Assembly (NCBI RefSeq): GCF_029625215.1
Contig: NZ_CP121197.1
Span: forward strand, 3,906,001 to 3,970,000
DNA length: 64,000 nt
Direction: 5' to 3'
From: Aurantibacillus circumpalustris
Lineage (GTDB): Bacteria > Bacteroidota > Bacteroidia > B-17B0 > Aurantibacillaceae
Shown here: positions 46,269 to 61,011 of the stretch, piece after piece
Layout of the letters: each line of letters begins with the position of its first letter
How positions within the stretch are numbered: position 1 is the first letter of the stretch
The notes under the pieces: model-generated
Databases searched by the model: none
What the model was told of the DNA's origin: nothing
The model's input: only the letters and a program-made list of their open reading frames with translations
Made by a program: the position numbers and the translations under genes

Positions 46269-47054
46269 CTAAGGTCTCGGGAACATTCCGTCTAATAAAG
46301 AATCTCTGAATTTTCGTGGAAGAATTTTACTCAACACAACTAAAAGATTTACATCGCCCGAAGGAACGATTAAATATTTTTTAGAGCCTTTTGCTTGTTT
46401 TAATATTTTAACGGCAACCTCTTCTGTTTTCATCAATTTACGCGGTGTTTCTTTTTTCATCCACTCCGGTGCATTTTTTACCTCATTGTGAAACTGAGGT
46501 GTATCCATGTCACCAGGACAAGCTACGTAAACATTTATTTTTTTGCTTAGTAATTCGCGACGTAAACATTCGCCAAAATTAATTACACCGGCCTTCGCAG
46601 CGCAATACATAGAGTAACCCGCAGCACCCATTAAACCAAAGCCTGAAGAAATCATCAGCACTTTAGTACCGCTTACCAATAAAGGTAAAAAGGTATGCGC
46701 AGAAAGAATCGTTCCCCATAAATCAATTTCAAGATCTTGTTTCATTTCTGAAGCACTTGTATAATCAGAAACCAATTTAGTAGTCACAACACCCGCGTTT
46801 AAAACCAGGTAGTCAATTTTTCCGTACTCCGACTTAACTTGTTCAGCTACCTTTTTCAAGCCTGCTTCATCTGTGATGTCACAAGAAATTCCTTTTGCTT
46901 TTATATTTTGCGCTGCTAATTTTGCAACCGAAGCCGTAATTTTTTCCTGATTTCTGGCTACAATTACAACAGAGTAACCGTCTTTACCAAGTAATTCTGC
47001 TAGTGCGTATCCTAGTCCGGATGAGCCTCCGGTAACTAATGCAACTTTTTCCAT
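46269..47054 (-). CDS. SDR resembling 3-ketodihydrosphingosine reductase
   Basis: A 261-aa short-chain dehydrogenase. Nucleotide-binding motif TGGSSGLG (8-15), NAG motif (86-88), catalytic Ser136/137, Tyr150 and Lys154 (Y-C-A-A-K). The C-terminal tail (KILPRKFRDSLLDGMFPRP) has a hydrophobic-basic ending like KDSR/Tsc10-type enzymes that reduce the 3-keto group of the sphingoid product. It is 3 bases after the oxoamine synthase gene in the same operon, the expected partner for such an enzyme. Substrate could equally be a ketone of another amine product; the specificity is inferred from context. Confidence 0.7.
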   Translation of the reverse strand: MEKVALVTGGSSGLGYALAELLGKDGYSVVIVARNQEKITASVAKLAAQNIKAKGISCDITDEAGLKKVAEQVKSEYGKIDYLVLNAGVVTTKLVSDYTSASEMKQDLEIDLWGTILSAHTFLPLLVSGTKVLMISSGFGLMGAAGYSMYCAAKAGVINFGECLRRELLSKKINVYVACPGDMDTPQFHNEVKNAPEWMKKETPRKLMKTEEVAVKILKQAKGSKKYLIVPSGDVNLLVVLSKILPRKFRDSLLDGMFPRP

Positions 47055-47057
47055 AAA

Positions 47058-48359
47058 TTATTTTTTTAAGAAATCAAATTTTTCAGCGGCACGTAAAATA
47101 ATATCTGCTGCTTTATCCAATTGTGCGTGTGTATGCTCTGAAGTAACAAACATGCGGATTCTAGCTCCACCTTTAGGTACCGCAGGAAACTGAATGATAC
47201 TTGTATCTAATCCTTCACGTTGTAAAAAATCGTTTAGATTTAATGTCTTCGCCTCGTTACCAAAGTTTACAATTACTACCCACGAATCATTTCCCCCCAC
47301 ATGCACTTTGTCTTGAAGTAAACTTCTAAAATAATTTGCATTATCCTTAATTCTTAATCTTCTTTCTTTTCCAAGTTCAGTACCAGCTAATTCGACCACT
47401 TTCGCCATTCCACCTGTAACAGCAGGATCTAAAGCACAAGAGAACATTCTGCATTTTGCATACCAGTTCATGTATTGGATAATTTCTTTTTTTCCATACA
47501 CGCCTCCTCCAACTCCACCAAACGCTTTGCTAAATGTCATCACATAAAGATCTACATCGGCTAAAACACCTTGCATTTCGCAAACGCCTCTGCCATGTTC
47601 TCCAGCAACTAAAGCTGAATGTGCTTCATCCACCAAAGTATACGCTCCGTATTTTTTTGCGAGTTCAACAACTCCTTTTACATTTCCATAATCTCCATCT
47701 CCACTATACAATCCTTCAATACAAATTAATACACGTGTAAATCCATCACACACTTTTTTAAGAATTTCTTCTAAGTGCGCCATGTCGTTGTGCTTAAAAT
47801 ACGTCATTTCACCACCTGAAAGTTTTGCACCTTCGATGATTGACATATGTGAAGCTTCATCCATTACCACATGATTACCCGGCTTAATAAAAGCAGAAAT
47901 TGCTCCTAAGTTTACGCTGTATCCAGCTGTAAACAAAGAAACCCCGCGATCAGGCAAACCAAAGAAATTCACAAGTGCTTCTTCCAATTGTTTGTGCACT
48001 AAATACGTTCCACTAATAACAGGAGAACTAGAAGCACCAAGACCGTATCTTCCCACCGCATCCTGTGCTGCTTTGATAACATCTGGATGGTAACTGAAAC
48101 CAAGATAATTGTAGCTCGATAAATTTATAATGTGAACATTCTCACCATTTTGTCTCGCTAAATCTATTTCTGTTTTTTGTGCCGCAGAGCGCACAGCTTC
48201 AAAGGTGTAAAGATCTTTCTTATTAAGAATATCTACCCACTCTGAAAATAAATCCATTTCTTCTAATTCAGAAGACATATTCATCATAAACATGTCGTAG
48301 GTATAATTCGAAAAATTATCCTGAAGGTGCTTCGACATTGTTTCATCAATTGTTGACAT
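47058..48359 (-). CDS. Alpha-oxoamine synthase (serine palmitoyltransferase family)
   Basis: A 433-aa PLP enzyme: SYNYLGFSYHPDVI (82-95), GLGASSSPVISGTYLVH (106-122), Asp244 and His247 (VDEAHS), PLP Lys278 (TFSKAFGG). It joins an acyl thioester to an amino acid with loss of CO2. Compared with usual bacterial serine palmitoyltransferases (about 395-400 aa) it has a 40-60-residue N-terminal extension (MFMMNMSSELEEMDLF). It lies 2 bases after an enoyl reductase gene and two genes after an ACP, so an ACP-bound chain is the likely acyl donor. Serine, cysteate or another amino acid is possible as co-substrate; the sequence does not decide it. Confidence 0.88.
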   Translation of the reverse strand: MSTIDETMSKHLQDNFSNYTYDMFMMNMSSELEEMDLFSEWVDILNKKDLYTFEAVRSAAQKTEIDLARQNGENVHIINLSSYNYLGFSYHPDVIKAAQDAVGRYGLGASSSPVISGTYLVHKQLEEALVNFFGLPDRGVSLFTAGYSVNLGAISAFIKPGNHVVMDEASHMSIIEGAKLSGGEMTYFKHNDMAHLEEILKKVCDGFTRVLICIEGLYSGDGDYGNVKGVVELAKKYGAYTLVDEAHSALVAGEHGRGVCEMQGVLADVDLYVMTFSKAFGGVGGGVYGKKEIIQYMNWYAKCRMFSCALDPAVTGGMAKVVELAGTELGKERRLRIKDNANYFRSLLQDKVHVGGNDSWVVIVNFGNEAKTLNLNDFLQREGLDTSIIQFPAVPKGGARIRMFVTSEHTHAQLDKAADIILRAAEKFDFLKK

Positions 48360-48361: not shown

Positions 48362-49177
48362 CTAAGCTGATTTAAGTTTGTTTTTTTGAGATCGGTTATA
48401 AATTTCCATCAAATTATCGAAGAAGGTCGTGCCTTTATCAACGGTAACTGTTTCGCCACTAATGGCATCACAATAACCAGAACAAAGACCAACAATGGCT
48501 TCCGACAATTCTTCTGGTAAAATCCAGAAATTATCTGGCATAAATTTTTCTACAAATTCTGCTAAATCTTTACCAAATGTATCTTCTAAAGATTTTGTTT
48601 TTATTGCACGAGAACGCACAACATTTACACAAACATCGTGTCCACGAAGATGGTAATTAAGATATTTAGCAAATAATTCGATCAAAGATTTAGAAGCTGC
48701 AACGTAATCGTAACCCATGGAATAATTATCAGGGCCTGTTGATGACATTCCTAAAATATACTTGGGATATACACCAAAAACTTTATAAATTTCTTTTGTA
48801 TAGCCAACCATTGGCCATGTTGAATACGAAATACTTTGTTTTAATCCTTTTAAAGAAAGATCATCAAAACTCCTAACAGAAGCAGCAACGGCTACGTTAC
48901 TAATAAATATATCAACCTTTGACGCGCGTTCTTTTATTTTATTTAATAATGCCGTTGTGTCGTCATTATTCACTACATCCGCCTGAATTAACATCGGTGT
49001 AGGAGCTCCTACTTCCTTGAAGCGGTTAAGTATAGCTTGCTCATCATGGTCTCCCCAGCTGTATGTAAGTACGCACAAGGCTCCCCTTTTTCCAAAGGAG
49101 AGCCCTGTTTCTAAACCTATACCCCTGGTTCCACCGGTAATAAGTACAACCTTACCTGAGAAATCCGGGAAACTCAT
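48362..49177 (-). CDS. FabL-like enoyl-ACP reductase (SDR)
   Basis: A 271-aa SDR with TGGTRGIG (14-21). The catalytic pair is Tyr156-x6-Lys163 (GYDYVAASK), the Y-x6-K spacing of enoyl-ACP reductases such as FabI/FabL, rather than Y-x3-K. The stretch SYSTWPMVGYTKEI is also reductase-like. It is a paralogue of the product of 50400-51203. It lies between the ACP and the oxoamine synthase genes with 2-base gaps on both sides, so it should reduce an ACP-bound enoyl chain before release. Which position is reduced is unknown. Confidence 0.72.
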   Translation of the reverse strand: MSFPDFSGKVVLITGGTRGIGLETGLSFGKRGALCVLTYSWGDHDEQAILNRFKEVGAPTPMLIQADVVNNDDTTALLNKIKERASKVDIFISNVAVAASVRSFDDLSLKGLKQSISYSTWPMVGYTKEIYKVFGVYPKYILGMSSTGPDNYSMGYDYVAASKSLIELFAKYLNYHLRGHDVCVNVVRSRAIKTKSLEDTFGKDLAEFVEKFMPDNFWILPEELSEAIVGLCSGYCDAISGETVTVDKGTTFFDNLMEIYNRSQKNKLKSA

Positions 49178-49179: not shown

Positions 49180-49428
49180 TTATGCAGTTTTAGGTGCAAA
49201 TGCTTCGAATTTGTCAATTAATCCAGAAATGTTCTGAATGTCTGATAATTCGGTACGTGGTATTTTTACTTTCAGCTCACGCATAGATCCTGAAACAATT
49301 TCTACGATATCTAAACTGTTAGCACCGTAATCTGTGAATTTTTTTTCAGGGTCAATTCCTGCGGCAATACCCGGTACGGACTTAGCCAAATGCTTTTCAA
49401 TAACTTTTAAGATTTCTCCTCTTTCCAT
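49180..49428 (-). CDS. Acyl carrier protein
   Basis: An 82-aa ACP with the phosphopantetheine attachment site Ser38 (DYGANSLDIVEIV). The acidic helix II and length are typical. It heads the operon ACP, enoyl reductase, oxoamine synthase, ketoreductase, with gaps of 2-3 bases. The only ACP in the window, so it likely carries the chain for the whole cluster; no second donor ACP is seen. Confidence 0.93.
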   Translation of the reverse strand: MERGEILKVIEKHLAKSVPGIAAGIDPEKKFTDYGANSLDIVEIVSGSMRELKVKIPRTELSDIQNISGLIDKFEAFAPKTA

Positions 49429-49479: not shown

Positions 49480-49583
49480 ATAAAATTCACTTGTTATTCA
49501 TATTTTTAATAAACAAAATATATATTTTTATTCACGTTTACGCGAAAATTGATAAACAAGGCCTTTAGAGCCCAATTATTTGT

Positions 49584-49591
49584 TATTTTTG
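49584..49591 (+). promoter_or_regulatory. TAnnTTTG promoter element of the divergent hydratase/reductase pair
   Basis: TATTTTTG followed by C at 49584-49592 is an exact -7 box. It lies 21 bases before the TTG at 49613 and 57 bases before the in-frame ATG at 49649. It faces the ACP promoter across about 100 bases. Confidence 0.45.
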
Positions 49592-49612
49592 CCCGCTAAT
49601 GTTAAATATTAG

Positions 49613-50410
49613 TTGAATAAGCAACTAGTACGAGAAGCTTTTATACGAATGGGATCGACTTCAAAGAATAGTTCAATAAACCTAACGTCTGAGTCAAATG
49701 GCGTTTTCACTCTTTTTATGGCGGATGCGGGAAGCAAAAATGCCTTAACGCCTGAATTTGTTGAATCTTTGGTGGAATGCTTACACTCCATAAAATTAAA
49801 CGATGCCATAAAAGTGCTGGTTTTAAAAGGCCTTCCTGAAGTATTTTGCTCTGGGGCAGATATGGATACGCTTGTGAAACTCTGCAAACGCCAACTTAAA
49901 CCGGTGGATATCATTCTTTCGAAAATGATGTTGGATATTCCCATTCCTGTGATTTCTGCGATGGAAGGCCACGCAATAGGAGGCGGATTGGCTTTGGGTC
50001 TATGTGCCGATGTTGCTGTGCTTGCAGAAGAAAGTCGCTACGGCTGTTCTTTTATGAATATGGGTTTTACACCAGGTATGGGAATTACCAAATTAATGGA
50101 ACATTATATGTCTCCTGCTATCGCCCAAGAGATGCAGTATACTGGTAAGTTTTATCAGGGCAGGGACTTAATTGGAAAAACAAATTTTAATTATATTCTT
50201 CCAAAAGAAGATGTTCTTGAAAAAGCAAATGCTTTAGCGGAATCAATGGCTGAAAAGCCTAGAAAAGCTTTAGCCGTTTTAAAACGTTATCAAAGTATGC
50301 AACGCCGTAAATTGTTTGAAGAAACATATAGCATTGAAACCATGATGCATGAATTAACTTTTAACGAAGACGAAATTTTAAAAATTATAAAAGAAAACTA
50401 TGTCAGATAA
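49613..50410 (+). CDS. PksI-like enoyl-CoA hydratase/decarboxylase (ECH2 of a beta-branching cassette)
   Basis: A crotonase-family protein of up to 265 aa. The oxyanion-hole loops are FCSGADMDTL and MEGHAIGGGLALGLCADVAVL, and the later GFTPGMGITKLM is the signature of PksI-type decarboxylating hydratases in beta-branching cassettes. It starts with TTG at 49613 or with ATG at 49649; the first gives a short leader, the second a more usual N-terminus. In known cassettes it decarboxylates the glutaconyl-ACP intermediate to leave a beta-methyl branch. It overlaps the next gene by 11 bases, so the two are coupled. Confidence 0.8.
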   Translation: MNKQLVREAFIRMGSTSKNSSINLTSESNGVFTLFMADAGSKNALTPEFVESLVECLHSIKLNDAIKVLVLKGLPEVFCSGADMDTLVKLCKRQLKPVDIILSKMMLDIPIPVISAMEGHAIGGGLALGLCADVAVLAEESRYGCSFMNMGFTPGMGITKLMEHYMSPAIAQEMQYTGKFYQGRDLIGKTNFNYILPKEDVLEKANALAESMAEKPRKALAVLKRYQSMQRRKLFEETYSIETMMHELTFNEDEILKIIKENYVR

Positions 50411-51203
50411 GAAAACAAAACGTGTAGTTCTCATAACAGGAGGAACTAAAGGAATTGGAAAAGAAATTGCATTTAAATTTGCCGAACATGGCGATCAGTG
50501 CATTATCACGTATGGTTGGGGAAGTATCGAAGATTCTGATTTTTTAAATGAGTTTAAAGCAAAAAATCTTCCTGAGCCTTTTTTAATTCAGTCGGATGTT
50601 ATCAATAACGAAGACACTGCCAATTTAATGAACGAAATTAAAACGCGTTTTGGCACAGTAGATATTTTTATTTCAAACGTTTCTTTTGCAAATCTTGTAA
50701 AAGGCATCGACGATTATAGTGAAGCCGCTCTTCTTAAAAGTATTGAATACAGCTGTTGGCCAATGATTGAATACACACGCCAAATGAAAACCATTTTAGG
50801 AAAATATCCTAAATACGTGATGGGTCTTTCATCTCATGGTCCTGATAGGTTTTATGTGAACTACGATTTTGCTGCTGCGACAAAAACTTTAAACGAAGTT
50901 TTGGTAAAATATTTGAATTACCATTTTTACGATGAAGCTGTGATCTTCAACATTCTTCGTACACGTCCTGTTATTACAGATTCTTTATTAATGACTGTAG
51001 GAAAAGAGTGGAAAGAATTTATTGAAAAATATGATATTCCAGGCACACACGTCGATCTTGAAGAAGTGGCGAATGTGGCTTACATCATGTGCAGCGGTTT
51101 AATGGACGGTATTAGAGGTCAAACCATTAATGCAGATAAAGGATATAACTTTATTGAGGGATATTCTTACATGTATAAAAATCGTGAAGAGTTTGGGATT
51201 TAA
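50400..51203 (+). CDS. Second FabL-like enoyl-ACP reductase
   Basis: A 267-aa SDR with TGGTKGIG (13-20) and Tyr155-x6-Lys162 (NYDFAAATK), so also of enoyl-reductase type. It shares long stretches with the reductase at 48362-49177 (LIQSDVINNEDT against LIQADVVNNDDT; YPKYVMGLSS against YPKYILGMSS). It is coupled to the PksI-like gene by an 11-base overlap. Since beta-branching leaves a double bond, this enzyme may saturate the branched product while the other acts elsewhere; that assignment is speculative. Confidence 0.72.
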   Translation: MSDKKTKRVVLITGGTKGIGKEIAFKFAEHGDQCIITYGWGSIEDSDFLNEFKAKNLPEPFLIQSDVINNEDTANLMNEIKTRFGTVDIFISNVSFANLVKGIDDYSEAALLKSIEYSCWPMIEYTRQMKTILGKYPKYVMGLSSHGPDRFYVNYDFAAATKTLNEVLVKYLNYHFYDEAVIFNILRTRPVITDSLLMTVGKEWKEFIEKYDIPGTHVDLEEVANVAYIMCSGLMDGIRGQTINADKGYNFIEGYSYMYKNREEFGI

Positions 51204-51217
51204 TCTGCGGGGAAAAT

Positions 51218-51404
51218 AACCACTAAGACACTGAGAAGCACTAAGAAATTGGTTGGCAGTTGGCGCTCGACTGTTTTAACCACGGAGGCACTAAGAGCAC
51301 TGAGAATCACTAAGAAATCAATTGGCAGTCAGCAGTTGGCAGTAAGTGATACAAACTATCAAAAACTCCGTGCAACTCTGTGATCTCCGTTACTCTGTGG
51401 TAAA
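51218..51404. repeat. GTGG-type short repeats in tandem and inverted orientation
   Basis: Two direct units start with AACCAC(T/G)...CTAAGA and end in TTGGCAGT (51218-51266 and 51279-51341). An inverted unit (CTCCGTGCAACTCTGTG, ending TCTGTGGTAA) lies at 51366-51404. They belong to the same family as the sequences flanking the GxxExxY gene. The stretch lies between the convergent ends of the reductase and PksH-like genes. Confidence 0.6.
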
Positions 51405-51415
51405 GAGATGCCGGA

Positions 51416-52108
51416 CTACATAAAATCAGAAATATCTTTTAATCTCTGTTTTATATCGGGTTCTTGTAAGCGTTTATTCAGAATATTCATGCCTCTTACA
51501 GCAAGCTCATCTTTATTAGCATTCGAAGTATAAACGATTTCTTTTATATCATTCACTGCATCGGGCTTACACGATCGCATTGAATTAATTGCATCTGTCA
51601 GTGCTTTTTCTTGGTCGTTTGTAATTTCGTCAACAACGCCAAATTCTTTTGCAATAGAAACAGAATATTTTTTTCCGGTAAATACCATTTTTTTAACCAG
51701 CTGCGGACTCAAGCGGTTTAACAAAGAAGGTAAAATCATTCCTGGTATTAATCCTAATAAACCTTCGGGTAAAGAAAATGTACTCGATTCATCAGCCACC
51801 ACGTGGTCACAAGCACACACTACCCCCATTCCCCCACCAGATACAACGCCTTTTACCAAAGCAATAGAAATAAATTTACCGCATTGCAACTTTTTTAAAA
51901 AGTCTGCATAGTGTTTCATGTCATGATGATGATCAGCCTCTTCGCTGTTGGCAACCCAAGATAAATCGAGTCCGTTACAGAAAATAGAACTACTCCCTTT
52001 TAATACAACAAAGCGCACATTTTGATTTTCGCATTCGAGTAACTGCGCATTTAAACTGCTAATAGATGCGGGATTTAGAACTTCCGGAATATTTATTTCT
52101 TTATACAT
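51416..52108 (-). CDS. PksH-like enoyl-CoA hydratase (ECH1 of a beta-branching cassette)
   Basis: A 230-aa crotonase-family protein. Oxyanion-hole stretches are IFCNGLDLSW and VKGVVSGGGMGVVCACDHVVADE; the motif FSLPEGLLGLIPGMILPSLL matches PksH-type dehydrating hydratases. In known cassettes it removes water from the HMG-ACP intermediate. It begins 2 bases after the HMGS gene, so the two are one operon. Length is normal for PksH. Confidence 0.8.
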   Translation of the reverse strand: MYKEINIPEVLNPASISSLNAQLLECENQNVRFVVLKGSSSIFCNGLDLSWVANSEEADHHHDMKHYADFLKKLQCGKFISIALVKGVVSGGGMGVVCACDHVVADESSTFSLPEGLLGLIPGMILPSLLNRLSPQLVKKMVFTGKKYSVSIAKEFGVVDEITNDQEKALTDAINSMRSCKPDAVNDIKEIVYTSNANKDELAVRGMNILNKRLQEPDIKQRLKDISDFM

Positions 52109-52110
52109 GA

Positions 52111-53343
52111 TTAACTAAAGGCGTAACTCCTATAATAATCTTTTGTTCCTGTATAAGTCAATAAGCCTTTACCTTTGTAAGCCTTTTCATACAAGCCTTC
52201 TACAGCATTGTAATCAGGAGTGAATTCACGGCTTTTAATACGTTCTTCACGCGCTAGTTCCATTGCCTCGTATTGTTTTACGGTAATAGGAAAACGTTTG
52301 CTGATTAAATCTGTTAAGCCCGTACCCAATGCAATTTCTTTTGATTTTGCGGTAGTTTGCATCACATAAAATTCAGCGCAAGAACCAGATCCGTATGAAA
52401 ACACACTTATTCTATCTTCTGCTTTTAAATCATTTACCACGCTTATAGTTGAGAGTAATGCAATAAAAACGCTACCTCCATAAGTACCACCAATACGTTT
52501 TGAAAAATTAATGGAAGGAGATACTTTGTTTGTCCAACTTTCTAAAATCGCTTCATCCGTTACATCATAATTACTCATACGCATTAATTGTTTGTGCGCA
52601 CGGTAGCTAATACCACTAAATGGTACATGATAAACATGGTATTTAAAATAAGAATCGTAATCAATAGTGCCGACATTTAATTCAAAATCCTCATAAGTCG
52701 CTGCTAGTGCTTCCATGTACGAATACAAACTATGCTCACTGTTACCTGTTTCTAACCAAGGTAAAGGACGAATAACATCGGCCACTTCATGTGCATATAA
52801 ACCAAATTTTTCCGTCTCTAATACTAAAAATTCTGGTTGATCGGAAACCAACATCGCTACTGAACCGCCACCACAAACGTATTCCCAAGGACGGTGAATA
52901 GAATTTAAACTTTCGTCCGTACTAATAATAAGCGCTTTTTGACCTTTGCGCGCCATGCCTGAAGAAAGCCATGACACAGCCATTTTTAATGCGGCCGTTC
53001 CAGAATAACAAGCAATCTTAACTTCGAAGTGACGACAAGCACTTGGTAAACCTAAATGTTGTAAAACCCATGAACTCACGGATTTTTCGTTATCTAAACT
53101 CGTTTCAGTACCAACTATGAGTAATCCAATAGAAGCAATATCTTCTTCTGTAAGCATTGGTTTTGCTGCATTAACAGCCATCGTTACTGTATCTTCCCAA
53201 GGTGGATTCACACTGCGTGTTTCAACCATAAGTTCCTTGCGCATGTGCTCAACATCGTAATTACGAGCAACTGCTAGCTCTTCAAGATTAAGTTGAAGGG
53301 CTGTAGGATACACTCTAATTTTTTCTATTCCGTATTTTTTCAT
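52111..53343 (-). CDS. HMG-CoA-synthase-family enzyme (beta-branching HCS)
   Basis: A 410-aa HMGS homologue. The catalytic Glu80 (IVGTETSLD), Cys112 (EVKIACYSGTAALK) and His239 (YHVPFSGISYRAHK) are all present. The position next to PksH- and PksI-like hydratases, an ACP and a ketosynthase identifies it as the aldol enzyme of a beta-branching cassette (as PksG) rather than a mevalonate enzyme. It would add acetyl from an acyl-ACP to a beta-ketoacyl chain. It ends 592 bases before the ketoreductase gene because a GxxExxY cassette lies between. Confidence 0.88.
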   Translation of the reverse strand: MKKYGIEKIRVYPTALQLNLEELAVARNYDVEHMRKELMVETRSVNPPWEDTVTMAVNAAKPMLTEEDIASIGLLIVGTETSLDNEKSVSSWVLQHLGLPSACRHFEVKIACYSGTAALKMAVSWLSSGMARKGQKALIISTDESLNSIHRPWEYVCGGGSVAMLVSDQPEFLVLETEKFGLYAHEVADVIRPLPWLETGNSEHSLYSYMEALAATYEDFELNVGTIDYDSYFKYHVYHVPFSGISYRAHKQLMRMSNYDVTDEAILESWTNKVSPSINFSKRIGGTYGGSVFIALLSTISVVNDLKAEDRISVFSYGSGSCAEFYVMQTTAKSKEIALGTGLTDLISKRFPITVKQYEAMELAREERIKSREFTPDYNAVEGLYEKAYKGKGLLTYTGTKDYYRSYAFS

Positions 53344-53360
53344 TTTATTCCTTCAAATGG

Positions 53361-53935: not shown

Positions 53936-54679
53936 CTACTCAGCCCAATCCAAACCACCAGTAACGCTTATTACTTGACCGTTTACAAAACTCGCAGCAT
54001 CAGAACCCAAAAACAAAGCCACCTCAGCTAATTCATCCAGATGTCCCATACGTTTCATTGGATTGTGCAGAAGCCAAAATTTTCTTAGGTTTTCACTTAA
54101 GGTTTCTTTAACCATGTCTGTTTCAAACATACCTGGTACCACTACATTACTGGTAATACCTTTGATTCCATATTCTTTCGCAATAGTCCCCGATAAACCA
54201 ATCAATCCGGCTTTACTAGCACTGTAATTCGCTTGGCCTGAAATACCATCTTTTGCGATTGAAGAAACAGAAACAAAATGACCTTTACGATTCGCTAAAA
54301 ACACTGGTAAAAATTGGCGAATGATATAAAATGCACCATTTAAGTTGGTGTCAATCACATCATGCCACTCTTCGTCGGTCATATGAAACGCTAAGTTATT
54401 GCGATTGATAGCAGCATTATTAATTACAGTATCAATTGATTCAAAATCATCCAACACAGCGTCAGTCACTCTTACAACATCATCAGGGTTTCTTACATTC
54501 AACTGATAACCTTTACACATGCGATCAGGTGCAAGTTTTTTGGTTTCATCCATCAACTGCTTAATGTGTTCGGTGTTGGAACTGTTATAGGTAAACGCAA
54601 CATCATGTCCTCTTTCCAAAGCCATGGTTACTATTCTACGACCAATTCCTCTTGATCCTCCTGTTATAAAAATCTTCAT
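53936..54679 (-). CDS. FabG-type ketoreductase
   Basis: A 247-aa SDR with TGGSRGIG (6-13), NNAAINR, catalytic Ser (SVSSIAKDG), and the Y-x3-K motif (NYSASKAG). The sequence closes with the FabG-like NGQVISVTGG. It reduces a 3-ketoacyl-ACP. It starts 15 bases after the ketosynthase gene in the operon malonyltransferase, dehydratase, ketosynthase, ketoreductase, (cassette), HMGS, PksH. Annotated as fabG-like; specificity for this chain is inferred from position. Confidence 0.9.
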   Translation of the reverse strand: MKIFITGGSRGIGRRIVTMALERGHDVAFTYNSSNTEHIKQLMDETKKLAPDRMCKGYQLNVRNPDDVVRVTDAVLDDFESIDTVINNAAINRNNLAFHMTDEEWHDVIDTNLNGAFYIIRQFLPVFLANRKGHFVSVSSIAKDGISGQANYSASKAGLIGLSGTIAKEYGIKGITSNVVVPGMFETDMVKETLSENLRKFWLLHNPMKRMGHLDELAEVALFLGSDAASFVNGQVISVTGGLDWAE

Positions 54680-54694: not shown

Positions 54695-55978
54695 CTAGCC
54701 TTTGTATTTCTTAATTAAGCTAATCGAATTTAATCCTCCAAAACCAAACGAGTTTTTAAGGAAAATATCGATGTTATGTTTTTTGCGTTCACCTCTACAA
54801 ACATCCACATCCACTTCTGGATCCAGATTATCAATATTAATCGATGGATGCAATTCGTTACGATTCATTTGTAAAATCGCAGCAACGGTTTCAACTGTAG
54901 CAGCTGACCAGCAGGTATGTCCTAATATTGATTTTGGTGCATTAATTTTTAGTGTTTTGCAATGATCTCCAAACACATCTTTAATTGATCTTAATTCTGT
55001 AAGATCTCCTAATGGAGTTGAAGTAGCATGAACATTGATGTAATCAACCTCTTCTGGTTTTACATTCGCATTTTTCAATAAACGTTTCATTAAACGTGAT
55101 TGACCAATTTGAGAAGGCTGTGGTAAATGGCATCCATCTGAAGAAGATTCAACACCCAGAATTTCAGCATAAATTTTAGCTCCACGCGCAAGTGCATGTT
55201 CTAAATCTTCAACAATAAGACAAGCCGCACCATGTGAAGGAACAAAGCCCTCACGTTGTGTATCGTAAGGCCTGCTTGCTCTTTGAGGTTCTTCATTAAA
55301 TGATTTATAAGTAATGGCACCTAAGATGCACATACCTTGTAAATCTAAAGGAGAGAAATCAAGTATTGGTCCAACAACCGCAGCAACTTTTACATCGTGT
55401 GATTGAATTTCATCAACTGCACAACGAAGGGCTACGTTACCACTTGCACAAGCAGCGCCAACGGTATAAGCTGGTCCGTGCAATTGTAAAACATCAGTTA
55501 CACTACCAACGTGGTGTGTATCCAATCCATTTAATGCAAATAAACCATCAATAAATTCAGGCTCTTCGTTAAACTCATCGTGGTTTTCGAAAGTATATTT
55601 TTGATTTAAATTATGTCCGGCAATAATTGTTGCCACATTATTTCCATCTTCTAGAGAGCCAATGTATCCTGAATCTAAAAAGGCTTCTACGGCAATCAAT
55701 AATGAAATGCCGATTGACAAAGGCGACTTGCTTCCTAGTTTTATAAGTCTATCGTAGGTAGCTTCCGGAATACGGCCTTTGTAAGATTTTATTTTTGCAA
55801 CTACATCGTAATTGCCCAAATCTCCACCAACCTTTGCATAAATCTTTGATGTATCAAGTGTATCCCACTTAGTTACAGCAGATTTACCATCCATCATGTT
55901 ATTAATAAATTCATCTAAAGTGTCTCCAATAGGGGTATTGATTGACATGCCTGTTATTACTACGCGTTTTTGTAACAT
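54695..55978 (-). CDS. Beta-ketoacyl-ACP synthase (KAS II/PKS-type ketosynthase)
   Basis: A 427-aa ketosynthase with Cys177 (GAACASGNVAL), His317 (NVHATSTPLGD) and His354 (SILGHTCWSAA), so the C-H-H active site is complete and it should form C-C bonds. Beta-branching cassettes usually carry a Cys-to-Ser decarboxylating ketosynthase; this one does not have that change, and no second ketosynthase or chain-length factor is in the window. The phrase DGCHLPQPSQIG replaces the usual motif near the pocket, so substrate preference may differ. It follows the dehydratase gene after 23 bases. Confidence 0.92.
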   Translation of the reverse strand: MLQKRVVITGMSINTPIGDTLDEFINNMMDGKSAVTKWDTLDTSKIYAKVGGDLGNYDVVAKIKSYKGRIPEATYDRLIKLGSKSPLSIGISLLIAVEAFLDSGYIGSLEDGNNVATIIAGHNLNQKYTFENHDEFNEEPEFIDGLFALNGLDTHHVGSVTDVLQLHGPAYTVGAACASGNVALRCAVDEIQSHDVKVAAVVGPILDFSPLDLQGMCILGAITYKSFNEEPQRASRPYDTQREGFVPSHGAACLIVEDLEHALARGAKIYAEILGVESSSDGCHLPQPSQIGQSRLMKRLLKNANVKPEEVDYINVHATSTPLGDLTELRSIKDVFGDHCKTLKINAPKSILGHTCWSAATVETVAAILQMNRNELHPSINIDNLDPEVDVDVCRGERKKHNIDIFLKNSFGFGGLNSISLIKKYKG

Positions 55979-56001: not shown

Positions 56002-56535
56002 TTAAGGATAATATACTTCTAAAATGCTGTGCGAATAAATTTCGTTGTTAATTGTAATTTGTGCTGCCATTAAACCCATAAAATCATCGTCTTCGATTGA
56101 TTTTACTCTAACAGTGAGAACGTCACCAGGCATAACACCTTTATTAAACCCTGCATTGTGTACTCGTGTGAAAAGTCCTTTTACAGGTATGTTTTTGTCA
56201 TTTATCTCTAAAGAGTTGTTTTTAACAAAATAAGCGAGGCATAATCCTGCCTGACCCATGGTTTCTATTTGCATAACCCCTGGATAAACAGGTGATCCTG
56301 GAAAATGTCCGGCAAAAATAGGATCAGTTGGGTCTATTTTGCTGGTTACTTCAATGATCGTTTCTTCAATATTAATGGCACTTATAGACGTAATAAGGGC
56401 AAATGGAGGTCGGTGAGGAATGATTTTATAAATATCCTCGACTTTAAAAGACACCTGAGCTGAATTTTTAGCAGGCATTTGTAATAGATCTCTTTTAAGG
56501 CTACTTATTAAGATTTCTGTTTCGTTACTATTCAC
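56002..56535 (-). CDS. FabZ-type 3-hydroxyacyl-ACP dehydratase
   Basis: A hot-dog-fold protein with IPHRPPFALI (about 39-48), catalytic His in AGHFPGSPVYPGVM and Glu in QIETMGQAG. The start is uncertain: GTG at 56535 gives 177 aa, while the internal ATG at 56478 gives 158 aa, closer to the usual FabZ length. A TAATATTG promoter-like element lies only 4 bases upstream of the GTG. It forms the trans-2-enoyl-ACP that the two reductases of the cluster use. Confidence 0.88.
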   Translation of the reverse strand: MNSNETEILISSLKRDLLQMPAKNSAQVSFKVEDIYKIIPHRPPFALITSISAINIEETIIEVTSKIDPTDPIFAGHFPGSPVYPGVMQIETMGQAGLCLAYFVKNNSLEINDKNIPVKGLFTRVHNAGFNKGVMPGDVLTVRVKSIEDDDFMGLMAAQITINNEIYSHSILEVYYP

Positions 56536-56639: not shown

Positions 56640-57485
56640 CTAAATGGATATTTTTTTAACGATATTGGTTAAAACCTCACTTGCGCCTATTTCGATGAAG
56701 TCGCACTCGCCTTGATACATAAGATATTCAACACTTTGTAACCATTTAATAGGGCTGTCAATTTGGTTAATCATATTTTTAATAATGGCTTCTCTTTCAA
56801 GTGGATAAACTGCTGCTGTATAATTAGAAATTACAGGAGTAATGCAGAATTTTAAAGTCATAGATTCAATAAAGTCATGAAACTGCTGCTTAACTGGCGT
56901 CATGTATCTAGAATGAAAGGCTCCACTCACTTTAAGAGGGATATAAACCATTCCTTCTTCTTCAAAAAAATCGGCTGCTTTGTTCAGTGATTCCGTTTTA
57001 CCAGAAATTACTATTTGAGACATGGTGTTAATGTTAGCAATGTCTATATCTGGAAAATTATTTTTTAAAATCTCTTTAATTTCTTTATAATCACCGCCAA
57101 TAACTGCAGCCATAGAAGTACCACCAACAGAAAACATAAGCTCTCCTCTTTTTTGTACTATTTTTAGACCTGTTTCAAAATCATAAACACCAGCCGCATT
57201 TAAGGCGTTAAACTCTCCTAGACTATGACCAATAAAATAGTTTGGAGCATCGTTTGATGCAAGATATTTTTGATAGTTTAAATAGTTAACAAAATACAGG
57301 GCGGGTTGGGTATAATTCGTTTGATTGAGCTTATTTTCTGGGTCAATTAGGCATAATTCGGCAATATCATAGCCTAAAGCTTTATTCGCTGTTTTAACAG
57401 CTTCCGGATATTCTTTAAACAATTGTTCTCCCATACCTTTGTACTGAGAACCTTGTCCGGGAAACATTATAACTTTGATTGACAT
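56640..57485 (-). CDS. Malonyl-CoA:ACP transacylase-like (trans-AT type)
   Basis: A 281-aa FabD-family protein with GQGSQYKGMG, nucleophile Ser88 (IGHSLGEFNAL), Arg113 (QKRGELM; binds the malonyl carboxylate) and His191 (SGAFHSRYM). The SGAFHSRYM phrase is typical of stand-alone acyltransferases of trans-AT PKS. It loads malonyl on the ACP for the cluster's ketosynthase. It is the first gene of its operon and follows a promoter-like element. Confidence 0.9.
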   Translation of the reverse strand: MSIKVIMFPGQGSQYKGMGEQLFKEYPEAVKTANKALGYDIAELCLIDPENKLNQTNYTQPALYFVNYLNYQKYLASNDAPNYFIGHSLGEFNALNAAGVYDFETGLKIVQKRGELMFSVGGTSMAAVIGGDYKEIKEILKNNFPDIDIANINTMSQIVISGKTESLNKAADFFEEEGMVYIPLKVSGAFHSRYMTPVKQQFHDFIESMTLKFCITPVISNYTAAVYPLEREAIIKNMINQIDSPIKWLQSVEYLMYQGECDFIEIGASEVLTNIVKKISI

Positions 57486-57601: not shown

Positions 57602-58504
57602 TTAAATCGGTTTTGACGAATTAAATCTTAAAAATAATGCGTACACCTTGTTACTCAGCAAGATAAATAATGGAGCTGAAATAATTCCTGCTATTACATC
57701 TACCAAATAATGCGCTTTAATGTACACAGTTGCCATACATATTCCCAAAACAAAAGGTAAAATCACATAAAACACTTTTTTTACGTGCTTATAAGCGAAA
57801 TAGGCAATAATTACAGCAATACCCACATGTGAACTTGGAAAAGCCGCTGTTGGTCTTTCCAAATCAGAAATTATGGTATGCATTAACTCTCCAAAAAACA
57901 GCCGAGGTGTTACATCACTATCAGCGCCAGCAACGTAATAATGAGGCCCTGCAACCGGAAAAATATCAAAAATAACATAATACAAATAAAACGAAAACAC
58001 GATCACAAAAATGTCTTTTTGCGAATTTTTTGGTGATTTTAGATAGATTAAAATGCAGACAGAACCAATAAGCAAATAATACGAAAAGTAACACATGTTC
58101 ATTAATTCGTTAAACCATACTTGTGGCATTACTTTTTGAAAAATGAGACTGGGCTGACAATTCCAAAGAATTTGTTCCAAATTAAAAAATAGCTCATCAA
58201 AATTTTCTTTGAAAATAATGTTTTTCATACAGCTTGTTTCTATATAAAAAAAACCTAGGAAAAGCAATGGATACAGATTCCTTACAAAAGCAAGCGATTT
58301 ATTTATAGGGTATTTATTCGTTATAAAAACGAGCGTAAAAACAGTTAAAACAAGCACTAGTCGCATACTTATGTGATTAACAACACAATCAACGTCTGAC
58401 GAGCCGAAAAGAAGATACACTAATGAAAGAAGCGCATATAACAGGGTGCTTATATCAAGTGGTAAAAGCCCCTTCCAACTATTATAAACTGTTTTGATTA
58501 TCAC
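57602..58504 (-). CDS. PAP2-superfamily membrane enzyme, Aur1-like (candidate inositol-phosphoceramide synthase)
   Basis: A 300-aa protein with six or so membrane spans. The phosphatase motifs are PTAAFPSSHVG (218-228, His226) and KAHYLVDVIAG (263-273, His265, Asp269); the second is close to the Aur1/IPC-synthase form. Such enzymes move a phosphoinositol head group to ceramide in fungi, and homologues exist in Bacteroidota. Its start overlaps the GNAT-like gene's stop by 4 bases (ATGA). Inositol-3-phosphate synthase lies near by, which supports the lipid assignment. A simple lipid phosphatase is the alternative. Confidence 0.72.
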   Translation of the reverse strand: MIIKTVYNSWKGLLPLDISTLLYALLSLVYLLFGSSDVDCVVNHISMRLVLVLTVFTLVFITNKYPINKSLAFVRNLYPLLFLGFFYIETSCMKNIIFKENFDELFFNLEQILWNCQPSLIFQKVMPQVWFNELMNMCYFSYYLLIGSVCILIYLKSPKNSQKDIFVIVFSFYLYYVIFDIFPVAGPHYYVAGADSDVTPRLFFGELMHTIISDLERPTAAFPSSHVGIAVIIAYFAYKHVKKVFYVILPFVLGICMATVYIKAHYLVDVIAGIISAPLFILLSNKVYALFLRFNSSKPI

Positions 58505-59622
58505 AAAGCAAGTTTGTACACTCTATATGTTTTGTAGATGTGCGCATTGATGTTAACCAAAGACTGATTCATCATTTCATTATTCTCTAAGATTAATGAA
58601 GCTTCCGCAGCGTGAATGTTATGTTTTTTCGCGTAAGCAATTGTTTTAGCGAAAAATACGGCTTCAATGCCCATTTTACGATAGCCCTCAATTACACCTA
58701 AAACAACAACACGCATTTTATCAATTTTTTTGCGTCCAAAAAGCAATTTAAAAATTCCAAAAGGCAACAAACGTCCCCTTTTTACATTTTTTAAAACCTG
58801 ATTAATATCTGGAAATGAAAAAGCAAATCCAATAAACTTTCCTTCGTGTTCTGCTATAAAACAAAGTTCAGGTTCCATAACAGCTTTCATGTCGTTACAC
58901 AAATACATGAATTCGTTATAGGTCATTGGAACAAAGCCTGTGTTTTTACCCCATGCCGAGTTGTATACATGCTGAGCTTTTTCGGCTTCTTCCTGAAATT
59001 TTTTCATGTTAACCGTTCGGATTGTTATTCCTTTTGTTTTTAAACGGTTTTCAAAAGCATCGCTCACACGGGTTGATTTCTCTGACACTTCCATGTCAGT
59101 TAAATAATAAGCAAAATGATCGGTGTTTTTTGTAAAGCCGTATTTTTCAGCGAACACGGGGTAATAAGGCTTGTTATAAGCAATGGCCATCATTGGCGGA
59201 GAGTCAAATGCATCAATGTGCCAACCGAAAAATTCGTTTGTAGAAAAACTTGCAGGCCCCAAAACTTGGGTTAATCCTTCTTTTTTTATCCAATCAGTAG
59301 CTGTATCAAATAAAAGTTTTGCAACTTCATAATCTTCTATACATTCAAAAAAGCCAAAAAAACCATCGTTACTACCGTTATGTTTGTTATGATTATTATT
59401 TCTAATAGCGGCAATACGCCCAACAATTTTATTATCGTTATATGCTAAAAATAGTTGTAGTTTGGAATGCTCATAGAAGGGGTGCTTCTTTGGATTGAGC
59501 ATACTTTTCTGAGATATATATAACTCAGGCACGTAGTTTGGATCACCTTCGTAAAGGTCGTGCGGAAAGTCGATAAACTCTTTTATTTTTTCTGGATACG
59601 TAATTTTCTCAATTCTAATCAT
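58501..59622 (-). CDS. GNAT-fold protein, candidate N-acyltransferase of the lipid
   Basis: A 373-aa protein with an N-terminal domain and a GNAT-type core: LFLAYNDNKIVGRIAAIRN (about 56-74), FFGFFECIEDYEVAKLLFDTATDWIKKEG (about 87-115), then LGPASFSTNEFFGWHID, and a second acyltransferase-like half (ELCFIAEHEGKFIGFAFSFPD, VVVLGVIEGYRKMGIEAVFF). The tandem GNAT arrangement fits bacterial ceramide synthase-type N-acyltransferases, which are GNAT-like, but I cannot confirm orthology. Translational coupling to the Aur1-like gene supports a step just before head-group transfer. Other acyl or amino-acid transferases remain possible. Confidence 0.6.
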   Translation of the reverse strand: MIRIEKITYPEKIKEFIDFPHDLYEGDPNYVPELYISQKSMLNPKKHPFYEHSKLQLFLAYNDNKIVGRIAAIRNNNHNKHNGSNDGFFGFFECIEDYEVAKLLFDTATDWIKKEGLTQVLGPASFSTNEFFGWHIDAFDSPPMMAIAYNKPYYPVFAEKYGFTKNTDHFAYYLTDMEVSEKSTRVSDAFENRLKTKGITIRTVNMKKFQEEAEKAQHVYNSAWGKNTGFVPMTYNEFMYLCNDMKAVMEPELCFIAEHEGKFIGFAFSFPDINQVLKNVKRGRLLPFGIFKLLFGRKKIDKMRVVVLGVIEGYRKMGIEAVFFAKTIAYAKKHNIHAAEASLILENNEMMNQSLVNINAHIYKTYRVYKLAL

Positions 59623-59737: not shown

Positions 59738-60961
59738 CTAAAACACTTCGCCAAGATTAATAAATAAACCTTGAGAGCCTTTGGTGCCGAAACCATAATC
59801 AATGGACAAGTTTGTGCCCGAGAATTTATTTAGTTTAATACGCAATCCAAAACCAGCTGCAGGTGAAATTGCAGTAAATTTATTTGACGGCCAATCGGTT
59901 ACAGATTGGGCGTTAGCAAACAAAACACCTCCTAAAAAGCCGCTGCGCAAAATTTTAAATCGGTATTCTGTTTCTAGGTAAAGTAAATTTTGTCCTCTCA
60001 GTCTGCTTTGAATATACCCTCGCCCTATGTTTGAATAAGCATCCCAGCCTGTGCTCGGTAAATCAAGATAAGGAACTTTACCTCCAAAAGTAAACCAGTT
60101 ATAACTCCAAAAAGATAAAACATTTTTCGCTTTACCTAAACTAAAATATTTTCTAAGGTCAACTATCACCGATTGCCAATTGGAGTTGCTACCTAAAAGT
60201 TTTGAGTAGTTGTAATAGGTTAAATTAGCATAGGTTCCACTTTTTGGATTAATTGTATTGCCACGATTATCAAAAAGTGTGTGTATAGATATACCTGAAG
60301 AAGTTGACGTTTCTGTTCGTCCGTAAAGATCAAAATCAGTGATAGTATCCGGAGAAGCAGTTACTTGTTTAATATTTGTATGGTGACTAAGATTGTATCC
60401 CAAACCGGCGTAGACATGCGATCCCTCAAAGTGTCTTAAAACAGCCTCTCTAAAAAGAAAAAATGTATAATCAAGACCCACACGATCTTTTAAATCTGTA
60501 TTTCCCCCAAGTCCGTATGTTTGTTCTGGGTATTTGTAATAGCGCCAGTTACCAAGAAAATTGTATTTGTTTTTTCGTGTCCAGATATTTGAACTAAGTG
60601 GTGCGATAATTTGATTGTTTTGCGAATAACTGCAACTTATACTCACTGCGGATTGATTTGTTTCTTCCAATGTATCTACATAAAAAGCCACGTTACCAGC
60701 GATTATTCCCGCTAAACGCGTTTGAAGCGTATAACCGATAAATGGAACAACCGTTATTCTTGGTTTTGTAGATTTAACACCAGTACCTTCCCCTCCAGCG
60801 TGTTTAAACTTAAAAATATCAATGATATCTTTTTCTTCATAAGTTGGAACACCAGAATTTTTCACACTATCTTCCCGAACCTCATTACTATCAACCTGCG
60901 AAAACGATTTTGAAACTAGCAAAAGACAAAGTAGTATTTGCCACAAGGGTGAAAAATTCAT
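59738..60961 (-). CDS. Omp85/D15-like outer-membrane barrel protein
   Basis: About 407 aa from the ATG at 60961, which gives a signal peptide (MNFSPLWQILLCLLLVSKSFSQ); a longer frame starts at 60994. The mature part lacks visible POTRA domains and looks like a barrel only: FIGYTLQTRLAGIIAGNVAF, SSGISIHTLFDNRGNTINPKSGTYANLTYYNYS, GRGYIQSRLRGQNLLYLETEYRF and a final GLFINLGEVF, matching the surface-antigen (D15) barrel. It may export the lipid product or be unrelated. It lies 50 bases after the PPTase gene, in the MFS-PPTase-barrel direction. Confidence 0.78.
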   Translation of the reverse strand: MNFSPLWQILLCLLLVSKSFSQVDSNEVREDSVKNSGVPTYEEKDIIDIFKFKHAGGEGTGVKSTKPRITVVPFIGYTLQTRLAGIIAGNVAFYVDTLEETNQSAVSISCSYSQNNQIIAPLSSNIWTRKNKYNFLGNWRYYKYPEQTYGLGGNTDLKDRVGLDYTFFLFREAVLRHFEGSHVYAGLGYNLSHHTNIKQVTASPDTITDFDLYGRTETSTSSGISIHTLFDNRGNTINPKSGTYANLTYYNYSKLLGSNSNWQSVIVDLRKYFSLGKAKNVLSFWSYNWFTFGGKVPYLDLPSTGWDAYSNIGRGYIQSRLRGQNLLYLETEYRFKILRSGFLGGVLFANAQSVTDWPSNKFTAISPAAGFGLRIKLNKFSGTNLSIDYGFGTKGSQGLFINLGEVF

Positions 60962-61011
60962 CGGCCAAAGATAATGGAATTGTTTGTTATACAAGACCCT
61001 TGTGATAATTA

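What the first reader, a model, noticed from the sequence alone, without database searches (positions are those of the whole stretch)
49613..53343. Complete HMGS beta-branching cassette without a modular PKS
HMGS (Glu80, Cys112, His239 intact), a PksH-like hydratase and a PksI-like decarboxylase are present with ACP and ketosynthase, but no modular PKS gene is in the window. Beta-branching is best known from trans-AT and other modular PKS; here the partners are discrete type II-like enzymes.
Basis: partly seen in the sequence, partly recalled or inferred. Interest (0 to 1): 0.8.

Follow-up and report, generated by a model that had tools for sequence, protein, structure and literature searches.

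The report
Methyl-branching enzyme set without giant synthase
A Bacteroidota bacterium carries a set of separate small enzymes for adding methyl branches to a growing carbon chain, a chemistry known mainly as a helper of giant assembly-line enzymes, and here it may feed an enzyme that makes sphingolipid-like molecules.

Summary
HMGS, ECH1 (weakly PksH-like) and ECH2 (PksI/CurF-like) lie at the stated place beside discrete AT, ACP, KS, KR, DH, two FabL-like enoyl reductases, a PPTase and an alpha-oxoamine synthase (AOS). The 4.6 Mb genome has no modular PKS: 11 KS-family matches, all in frames of 450 aa or less. It holds one HMGS and no NRPS condensation domain over cut-off. The HMGS is of polyketide rather than mevalonate type by HMM scores and C-terminal tail; its tree position is favoured, not proven. 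HMGS, AOS and ECH2 occur in 17, 16 and 17 of 87 family genomes and coincide in 15-16. The KS is sister to the decarboxylating KS0 of classical cassettes but keeps its catalytic Cys, so the classical definition is not fully met. A Serratia plasmid carries a homologous discrete set without the AOS. Best reading: a dissociated, reducing, beta-branching synthase makes a methyl-branched acyl-ACP that the AOS releases as a sphingoid-like aminoketone. The product is unknown. New variant of a known kind; an annotated Streptomyces type II aromatic cluster shows that beta-branching genes outside modular PKSs are not unique.

The parts
46269..47054 (-). SDR1, classical YxxxK ketoreductase; proposed reducer of the AOS product
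   Evidence: PF00106 3.5e-47; Y150/K154 in 17 of 17 rows; adjacent to the AOS in every mapped locus that holds both
47058..48359 (-). AOS: PLP-dependent alpha-oxoamine synthase, proposed chain-release enzyme
   Evidence: bioF, KBL and SPT models all below cut-off; best PDB matches 8s1y (named BioF/KBL, 214 bits), KBL 3tqx (213) and SPT (192); own clade 100/99, apart from the genome's KBL, SulA-like and BioF-like enzymes; K278, H171, D244 in 18 of 18 rows
48362..49177 (-). SDR2, FabL-like enoyl-ACP reductase candidate (Y-x6-K)
   Evidence: best NCBIfam match FabL 105.7 bits, cut-off 328; Y156/K163 in 21 of 21 rows, some of which are matches to the sister gene SDR3
49180..49428 (-). ACP, the only carrier protein found in the cluster
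   Evidence: PF00550; best NCBIfam PRK07117 51 bits, cut-off 79; Ser38 in 18 of 18 rows; 59% to the Serratia pSF001 ACP
49613..50410 (+). ECH2, PksI/CurF-like decarboxylase; start probably ATG 49649
   Evidence: PRK07110 280 bits, over cut-off 215; CurF/PksI best in PDB; His246 (CurF His240, numbering recalled) in 20 of 20 rows
50400..51203 (+). SDR3, FabL-like enoyl reductase candidate (Y-x6-K); overlaps the ECH2 gene by 11 bases
   Evidence: best NCBIfam FabL 92.8 bits, cut-off 328; Y155/K162 in 21 of 21 rows, some of which may be matches to SDR2; overlap
51416..52108 (-). ECH1, PksH-like dehydratase
   Evidence: PksH best PDB match, 84.8 bits against 78.8 for the next; PRK07112 128.7 bits, cut-off 250
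52111..53343 (-). HMGS, polyketide beta-branching type
   Evidence: only PF08540 match in the genome
53408..53839 (-). GxxExxY protein, probably an accessory insertion, not part of the pathway
   Evidence: TIGR04256 135 bits, cut-off 35; at this place only in L018/L147 among the relatives mapped
53936..54679 (-). FabG-like ketoreductase
   Evidence: PF13561 9.1e-53; Y152/K156 in 17 of 17 rows
54695..55978 (-). KS, sister to cassette KS0 but with Cys-His-Lys-His intact
   Evidence: PRK07103 340 bits, cut-off 445; fabF 303, cut-off 494; tree 97/96 with six cassette KS; Cys177, His317, Lys349, His354 in 17 of 17 rows
56002..56535 (-). FabZ-like dehydratase
   Evidence: PF07977 7.2e-17; His77/Glu91 in 16 of 16 rows
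56640..57485 (-). discrete AT (malonyl-CoA:ACP transacylase, FabD type)
   Evidence: TIGR00128 289 bits, over cut-off 260.9; Ser88 in 14 of 14, His191 in 15 of 15 rows
57602..58504 (-). PAP2-family membrane protein
   Evidence: PF14378 5.6e-20; beside the GNAT gene in 8 distinct relatives
58501..59622 (-). YghO-like GNAT acyltransferase, candidate bacterial ceramide synthase (inference)
   Evidence: 31-36% over at least 95% of its length in the 15 of 45 plasmid records listed, among them YghO and GNAT genes near SPT-like AOS + ACP genes in Sphingomonas and Roseomonas
59738..60994 (-). Omp85-family outer membrane protein; role unknown
   Evidence: PF01103 7.5e-08; Omp85_fam 71.9 bits, cut-off 200
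61012..61689 (-). 4'-phosphopantetheinyl transferase
   Evidence: PF01648 2.2e-13; HetI-like 131.8 bits, cut-off 370
61708..62907 (-). MFS transporter, candidate exporter
   Evidence: PF07690 9.5e-44; 18 bases from the PPTase gene; among the mapped relatives seen only in L022

Best explanation
The locus encodes a dissociated (type II), reducing synthase with built-in beta-branching. Proposed route: AT loads malonyl on the single ACP; the KS elongates (and perhaps also decarboxylates malonyl-ACP to acetyl-ACP); at one or more beta-keto stages HMGS adds acetyl, ECH1 dehydrates and ECH2 decarboxylates to a 3-methyl-enoyl-ACP, which a FabL-like reductase (SDR3, whose gene overlaps that of ECH2) saturates. 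Other cycles use FabG, FabZ and SDR2. The AOS releases the methyl-branched acyl chain by condensing it with an amino acid to an alpha-aminoketone, SDR1 reduces the ketone, and the YghO-like GNAT may N-acylate it, giving a sphingolipid-like product. Shown: gene identities, intact catalytic residues, co-inheritance of three marker genes, no modular PKS in this genome. Inferred: reaction order, ACP sharing, AOS release and the lipid end product. My estimates: discrete beta-branching on a non-modular chain 0.8; release by the AOS 0.65; sphingolipid-like end product 0.45. Whether the branch is set once (isovaleryl-type starter) or repeatedly is undetermined.
For: Family matches and intact residues. 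No modular PKS in G000; in 17 further genomes 102 of 103 KS-family matches lie in frames of 460 aa or less, the other in one of 620 aa with a 27.8-bit partial match. Co-inheritance over 87 family genomes: HMGS 17, AOS 16, ECH2 17; HMGS with AOS 15, HMGS with ECH2 16, AOS with ECH2 16; Fisher p 8e-14, 2e-15, 1e-16; the mismatching genomes are G398 (60% complete), G452 (56%) and G447 (82%). In L019, L020, L024, L025 and L026 no ACP, AOS or ECH2 lies within 10 kb of the HMGS, yet G454, G468, G470 and G453 keep HMGS, AOS and ECH2 with the AOS on another contig than the HMGS. Homologous discrete set on Serratia fonticola pSF001: AT 39%, ACP 59%, DH 35%, KS 39-50%, FabG 47-51%, HMGS 45%, ECH1 31-36%, ECH2 50%, SDR 36%. 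KS sister to cassette KS0 (97/96) but with Cys. AOS-like and GNAT relatives co-locate in Sphingomonas and Roseomonas plasmids.
Against: No product is known and nothing was tested chemically. ECH1 is only weakly PksH-like. In ECH2 the residues aligned with CurF Tyr82 and Lys86 are Thr (20 of 20) and Leu or Ile, although the PksI chain shown also differs there. By PDB search alone the KS looks like FabF (227.7 bits), and another Cys-bearing KS of the genome (L003) joins the KS0 plus window group next (95/98). No Cys-less KS0 and no second ACP are in the cluster; the ACP has no Trp shortly after its Ser (the acceptor-ACP Trp motif is recalled), so which ACP is the acceptor is open. The HMGS tree does not formally reject grouping with MVA rows (p 0.08). 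Serratia pSF001 showed no AOS, so the AOS is not part of the shared core. The AOS passes no named family's cut-off and its clade is not joined to the SPT-like rows. PAP2, GNAT and Omp85 are absent from the 21 kb locus L027.
Confidence: 0.6

Rival explanations
1. Starter-unit variant (a special case of the best explanation, so the odds are not exclusive): the branching enzymes act once, on acetoacetyl-ACP, to make isovaleryl-ACP without leucine (an ACP-borne analogue of the myxobacterial alternative isovaleryl-CoA route, recalled), which primes an iso-branched chain for the AOS.
For: Acetoacetyl is the natural acceptor of HMG-CoA synthases (recalled); SDR3 beside ECH2 would give isovaleryl; the genome has a SulA-like cysteate acyltransferase, so capnine-type lipids, which carry iso chains (recalled), are plausible in the same cell.
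Against: A dedicated KS, FabG, FabZ, AT and second enoyl reductase would be superfluous if the housekeeping FAS could extend the starter. The sequence alone cannot decide.
Confidence: 0.35
2. Short-chain alpha-aminoketone signal: the AOS releases a short branched acyl-ACP, as CqsA does for CAI-1.
For: AOS and reductase genes are adjacent; CAI-1 synthase chains are among the PDB matches (97 bits).
Against: CAI-1 synthase is a weaker match than KBL or SPT (213, 192 bits); a GNAT of the family found near SPT-like genes and a PAP2 gene lie in the same block in 8 distinct relatives.
Confidence: 0.12
3. Two unrelated pathways that happen to be neighbours: a branching set for one product, and AOS+SDR1 for another.
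For: Sub-blocks are separated in several genomes; Serratia has the branching set, and no AOS was found on its record.
Against: HMGS, AOS and ECH2 are kept or lost together over 87 genomes, also where not neighbours; ACP, SDR2, AOS and SDR1 are 2-3 bases apart.
Confidence: 0.1
4. The HMGS belongs to mevalonate metabolism, or the cassette helps a modular PKS encoded elsewhere.
For: AU p 0.08 for HMGS with MVA rows. HMG-CoA reductase was not searched for.
Against: HMM scores 355 against 217, PKS-type C-terminal tail, PksI-type ECH2, no modular PKS in the genome.
Confidence: 0.04

Closest known systems
HMGS beta-branching cassettes of trans-AT and other modular PKSs (PksG/PksH/PksI, CurD/CurE/CurF; pTML1, the thiomarinol plasmid by recall)
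   Same: HMGS, ECH1, ECH2, a small ACP and a KS-family protein with recognisable relatives here
   Different: No modular PKS to act on; KS keeps Cys where 6 of 6 compared cassette KS have Ser (five) or Met (one); one ACP; own KR, DH, ER, AT and an AOS
Serratia fonticola plasmid pSF001 (CP013914.1), a discrete set
   Same: AT, ACP, DH, KS with Cys, FabG, HMGS, ECH1, ECH2 and a Y-x6-K SDR as separate genes; HMGS joins the window clade (100/99)
   Different: No AOS found on the record; several genes are broken in the deposited sequence
PKS-derived sphingolipids of Pseudomonas MYb115 (SgaA PKS + SgaB AOS, PMC12134224; abstract and passages seen)
   Same: A dedicated polyketide-type synthase whose chain is taken off by an SPT-like AOS
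   Different: SgaA is a monomodular iterative type I PKS; the term beta-branch does not occur in that text
Type II aromatic PKS cluster with an HMGS/LnmK cassette, Streptomyces xanthii plasmid NZ_CP061282.1
   Same: HMGS, an enoyl-CoA hydratase family gene, a second ECH-sized gene and ACPs near a discrete KS and chain-length factor; no modular PKS is annotated in the 49 kb shown
   Different: KS-CLF with aromatase/cyclases, LnmK and deoxysugar genes; no AOS annotated
Bacterial ceramide pathway (Spt, bCerS, CerR; PMC11087976, passages seen)
   Same: AOS plus an acyltransferase; the window GNAT belongs to a family found near SPT-like AOS + ACP genes
   Different: That route uses fatty acyl-CoA or -ACP and serine; the AOS here is not an SPT over cut-off

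Membership tests
HMGS beta-branching cassette (definition: PMC12560621, passages) | HMGS of PKS type with catalytic Glu/Cys/His | tested here: met
   tree placement favoured, not proven
HMGS beta-branching cassette (definition: PMC12560621, passages) | ECH1 dehydratase | tested here: inconclusive
   best PDB match PksH by a small margin; NCBIfam PRK07112 below cut-off
HMGS beta-branching cassette (definition: PMC12560621, passages) | ECH2 decarboxylase (in several cassettes) | tested here: met
   PRK07110 280 bits over cut-off 215, CurF/PksI best
HMGS beta-branching cassette (definition: PMC12560621, passages) | KS0: non-elongating, decarboxylating (tested as loss of the catalytic Cys) | tested here: not met
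   Cys present in 17 of 17 rows, 14 distinct; 6 of 6 comparison cassette KS have Ser or Met
HMGS beta-branching cassette (definition: PMC12560621, passages) | separate donor ACP and acceptor ACP | tested here: inconclusive
   one ACP in the cluster; 18-33% to eight cassette ACPs and 17-23% to five other ACPs of the genome (a sixth, L032, was read in the wrong frame there and is dropped); a housekeeping ACP could be the acceptor
HMGS beta-branching cassette (definition: PMC12560621, passages) | acts in trans on a modular PKS | tested here: not met
   no modular PKS in the genome
Mevalonate-pathway HMG-CoA synthase | passes TIGR01835 equivalog cut-off | tested here: not met
   246.6 bits, cut-off 360.35
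Mevalonate-pathway HMG-CoA synthase | HMG-CoA reductase in the genome | not tested
Type II (dissociated) PKS/FAS | activities on separate proteins, malonyl AT and ACP with Ser | tested here: met
Type II (dissociated) PKS/FAS | condensing KS with Cys-His-His | tested here: met
   residues met; activity not testable here
Serine palmitoyltransferase / sphingolipid pathway | AOS passes an SPT equivalog cut-off | tested here: not met
   SPT models 223-264 bits, cut-offs 500-670
Serine palmitoyltransferase / sphingolipid pathway | N-acyltransferase (bCerS) | tested here: inconclusive
   31.8% over the full length to the GNAT about 6 kb from an SPT-like AOS (annotated only as PLP aminotransferase) + ACP in Sphingomonas plasmid L167; no bCerS reference sequence was compared
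Serine palmitoyltransferase / sphingolipid pathway | sphingoid base or ceramide product | not testable with these tools
   needs lipidomics

The most novel reading that the evidence does not exclude
The cluster is an iterative beta-branching fatty acid synthase: one KS, one ACP and the HMGS set act repeatedly, so that the chain carries several methyl branches and resembles an isoprenoid although it is built on ACP from malonate, and the AOS turns it into a methyl-branched sphingolipid. Its KS and HMGS would represent the state from which the helper cassettes of modular PKSs arose, before the cassette KS lost its Cys.
Probability: 0.2. Interest if true: 0.88.

Novelty: new variant of a known kind. 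Interest (0 to 1): 0.64.

Why it matters
Beta-branching by HMGS cassettes is described as a helper function of modular assembly lines with a non-elongating KS0. A self-contained, dissociated version with an elongation-competent KS in the KS0 sister position, in Bacteroidota and (without the AOS) on an enterobacterial plasmid, suggests that the chemistry can run on a fatty-acid-like synthase. It offers a minimal system for reconstitution and points to a class of branched sphingolipid-like molecules that the ten literature searches made here did not show. It also poses a testable evolutionary question: did the KS0 arise from such a condensing KS, or the reverse?

Tried and rejected
Modular PKS outside the window: rejected by the whole-genome KS search. 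NRPS: one sub-threshold hit, 20.8 bits against a cut-off of 30.6. Mevalonate HMGS: disfavoured, but the AU test does not reject it outright. A standard SPT role for the AOS: below every SPT cut-off; the genome's other AOS enzymes are KBL (over cut-off), a SulA-like enzyme (593 and 576 bits to 7u7h and 28eh) and two BioF-like proteins below cut-off.

A wide distribution in the phylum: not seen. In 392 genomes drawn across the phylum only the window's own genome has a close HMGS; the other 56 matching genomes score 65.6 bits or less. The order search returned the same 87 genomes as the family search. A viral-contig scan found nothing. The 15 loci and the genomes overlap.

Literature: ten searches listed no paper that I recognised as describing a dissociated reducing beta-branching set with an AOS. 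Only the held open-access library was searched, lists were capped, and most hits were seen as listings only. Passages were seen of PMC12134224, PMC5116633, PMC11334938, PMC11087976, PMC12560621 and PMC9582728, and one whole section of the last.

Limits of the trees. The comparison HMGS and KS were picked by me from plasmid hits (one search lists 40 of 47 records). The label 'PKS-type' rests on low distance to each other and on neighbouring ECH, KS or PKS genes where annotated; Photobacterium and Nostoc have no annotation. Of the 13 'MVA' rows three have an HMG-CoA reductase neighbour; the nine flavobacterial rows and Natrinema (annotated 'PksG family protein') are so labelled from similarity alone. 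HMGS trees used 13 of the 15 loci (L018, split, and L023, cut, left out); the KS tree used six relatives. From I dropped MVA_Natrinema, four flavobacterial rows and three cluster rows that were; its outgroup was not one clade, and long branches meet. In one search locus L014 was not in the set, and two or three identical pairs per gene are included (listed; for GNAT and PPTase one). No structures were predicted; no trees of ECH1 or ECH2 were made.

Full report
What is there. They sit inside a larger block, 46269-62907, of discrete genes: SDR1, AOS, SDR2, ACP, the four above, a GxxExxY gene, FabG, KS, FabZ-type DH, AT, PAP2, GNAT, Omp85, PPTase and MFS. SDR1, AOS, SDR2 and ACP are 2-3 bases apart, ECH1 and HMGS 2, FabG-KS-DH 15-23, and ECH2 overlaps SDR3; other gaps on the same strand are up to 116 bases, except PAP2-GNAT, which overlap.

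Is it a beta-branching set? HMGS matches CurD, 8s81 and PksG best (240, 230 and 225 bits; next HMG-CoA synthase 168) and fails the equivalog cut-off of the bacterial HMG-CoA synthase model (246.6 against 360.35). HMMs built here score it 355 (11 PKS-type rows) against 217 bits (13 MVA-type rows), and the PKS-type C-terminal tail of about 50 residues is present. In a 39-row tree the window clade plus Serratia is one deep clade (100/99), next to the PKS-type clade when rooted on MVA rows. With more distant rows the join is 93/82, and neither alternative is rejected (AU p 0.080 and 0.089). ECH2 passes the curated cut-off of its family (280 against 215). ECH1 is the weakest assignment (84.8 against 78.8 bits). 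The catalytic residues tested in HMGS, KS, AT, ACP, DH, FabG, SDR1 and AOS were the same in every Bacteroidota row read (14 to 19 rows per site, with two or three identical pairs per gene). SDR2 and SDR3 keep the enoyl-reductase pattern Y-x6-K (pattern recalled from FabI/FabL) in 21 of 21 rows each, some of which are matches to the sister gene. In ECH2 the His is kept in 20 of 20, but the positions of CurF Tyr82 and Lys86 are Thr and Leu/Ile (CurF numbering recalled). For ECH1 only one oxyanion-type Gly was checked.

No modular PKS. The genome is one contig of 4,604,442 bases. All 11 KS-family matches lie in open frames of 359-450 aa. Only one HMGS is found, and no condensation domain passes its cut-off. 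In 17 further genomes (16 with the HMGS, and G447 with AOS and ECH2) 102 of 103 KS-family matches lie in frames of 460 aa or less; the other is a 27.8-bit partial match in a 620 aa frame. Several of these assemblies are fragmented, so this is weaker than the complete genome.

A single inherited unit. Among 87 genomes of the family a close HMGS (71% or more, own genome included) is found in 17, the AOS at E <= 1e-80 in 16 and ECH2 at E <= 1e-40 in 17. HMGS and AOS coincide in 15, HMGS and ECH2 in 16, AOS and ECH2 in 16; Fisher p 8.1e-14, 2.4e-15 and 1.4e-16 (relatedness of the genomes is not corrected for). The disagreeing genomes are incomplete: G398 60%, G452 56%, G447 82%. In several genomes the set is split into an AT-DH-KS-FabG-HMGS(-ECH1) block and a SDR3-ECH2/ACP-SDR2-AOS-SDR1 block, and G454 has HMGS, AOS and ECH2 on three contigs. 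Small contigs alone can cause such splits, but L019, L020, L024, L025 and L026 show 10 kb beyond the HMGS without the second block. A phylum sample of 392 genomes shows no other close HMGS, so within the phylum the set looks patchy and confined to one family as far as sampled.

The odd ketosynthase. Among NCBIfam models the KS scores best with PRK07103 (340 bits) before fabF (303), below both cut-offs; in the PDB its best matches are FabF. In a 21-row tree it is sister to six KS proteins that lie next to HMGS genes (97/96); grouping it with the FabF rows is disfavoured (AU p 0.038); another KS of the genome, L003, joins next (95/98). Those six have Ser (five) or Met (one) at the catalytic position, in keeping with the non-elongating, decarboxylating KS0 of the classical definition (PMC12560621, passages; PMC9582728, section on type II KSs). 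The window KS and its relatives have Cys (17 of 17 rows, 14 distinct), and so do both Serratia pieces. A condensing role is therefore likely; whether it also decarboxylates malonyl-ACP is open. The cluster has one ACP, so donor and acceptor roles are shared, or the acceptor is another ACP; six other PF00550 matches exist in the genome.

A relative on a plasmid. Serratia fonticola pSF001 encodes AT, ACP, DH, KS, FabG, HMGS, ECH1, ECH2 and a SDR with the same Y-x6-K motif as separate genes, at 31-59% identity. The AOS query finds nothing on that record (the tool warns that an empty answer without a positive control shows nothing by itself). This suggests a shared core without the AOS. An annotated Streptomyces xanthii plasmid shows HMGS, LnmK and ECH-family genes in a cluster with a KS, a chain-length factor and aromatase/cyclases. 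Beta-branching genes outside modular PKSs therefore already exist in deposited records, which limits the novelty claim.

Where the chain goes. The AOS is a separate clade (100/99) in a small tree with long branches. The genome has a SulA-like enzyme, KBL and two BioF-like proteins besides. The GNAT belongs to the YghO family; members lie about 6 kb from an SPT-like AOS and an ACP in a Sphingomonas plasmid, and about 10 kb from an AOS and ACP in a Roseomonas plasmid (those AOS are annotated only as PLP aminotransferases). Together with SDR1 and PAP2 this points to a sphingolipid-like product, by inference. PKS-fed AOS release has precedent in SgaA/SgaB (PMC12134224, abstract and passages).

Verdict. 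It works like a beta-branching cassette joined to a dissociated fatty-acid-like synthase. New variant of a known kind; product unknown.

Noticed in passing
window 53408-53839: A GxxExxY protein gene sits between HMGS and FabG; among the relatives mapped only L018/L147 has one there, so it looks like a recent insertion.
   Followed up: partly
L018 6923-8159 / L147 13808-15044 (G403): The HMGS gene is split into two frames in this assembly, real or a sequencing error; read as pieces only.
   Followed up: no
G000:C1:4525931-4543774: Five KS-family matches and three ACP matches within 18 kb, probably an aryl polyene/flexirubin-type cluster (recalled resemblance, not tested).
   Followed up: no
G000:C1:2323530-2324585 (L037): A SulA-like cysteate C-fatty acyltransferase (576 bits to 28eh), suggesting that the organism may also make sulfonolipids.
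   Followed up: partly
window 63270-63998: Myo-inositol-1-phosphate synthase (PF07994) next to the cluster on the opposite strand; a link to inositol lipids is possible but untested.
   Followed up: no
window 44990-45883: Protein that by eye begins like a TIR domain (FISHSSKD), next to a membrane protein gene; possibly a defence gene.
   Followed up: no
window 6352-6535: Tandem repeat, 85-base unit, 2.2 copies, 88% matches.
   Followed up: no
L133 and L134 (CP013914.1): The two ends of this circular record carry overlapping copies of the same branching genes with frame differences, so the deposited sequence looks untrimmed and error-rich.
   Followed up: no
L174 24384-30395 (NZ_CP061282.1): HMGS/LnmK cassette within a type II aromatic PKS cluster with deoxysugar genes.
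   Followed up: partly
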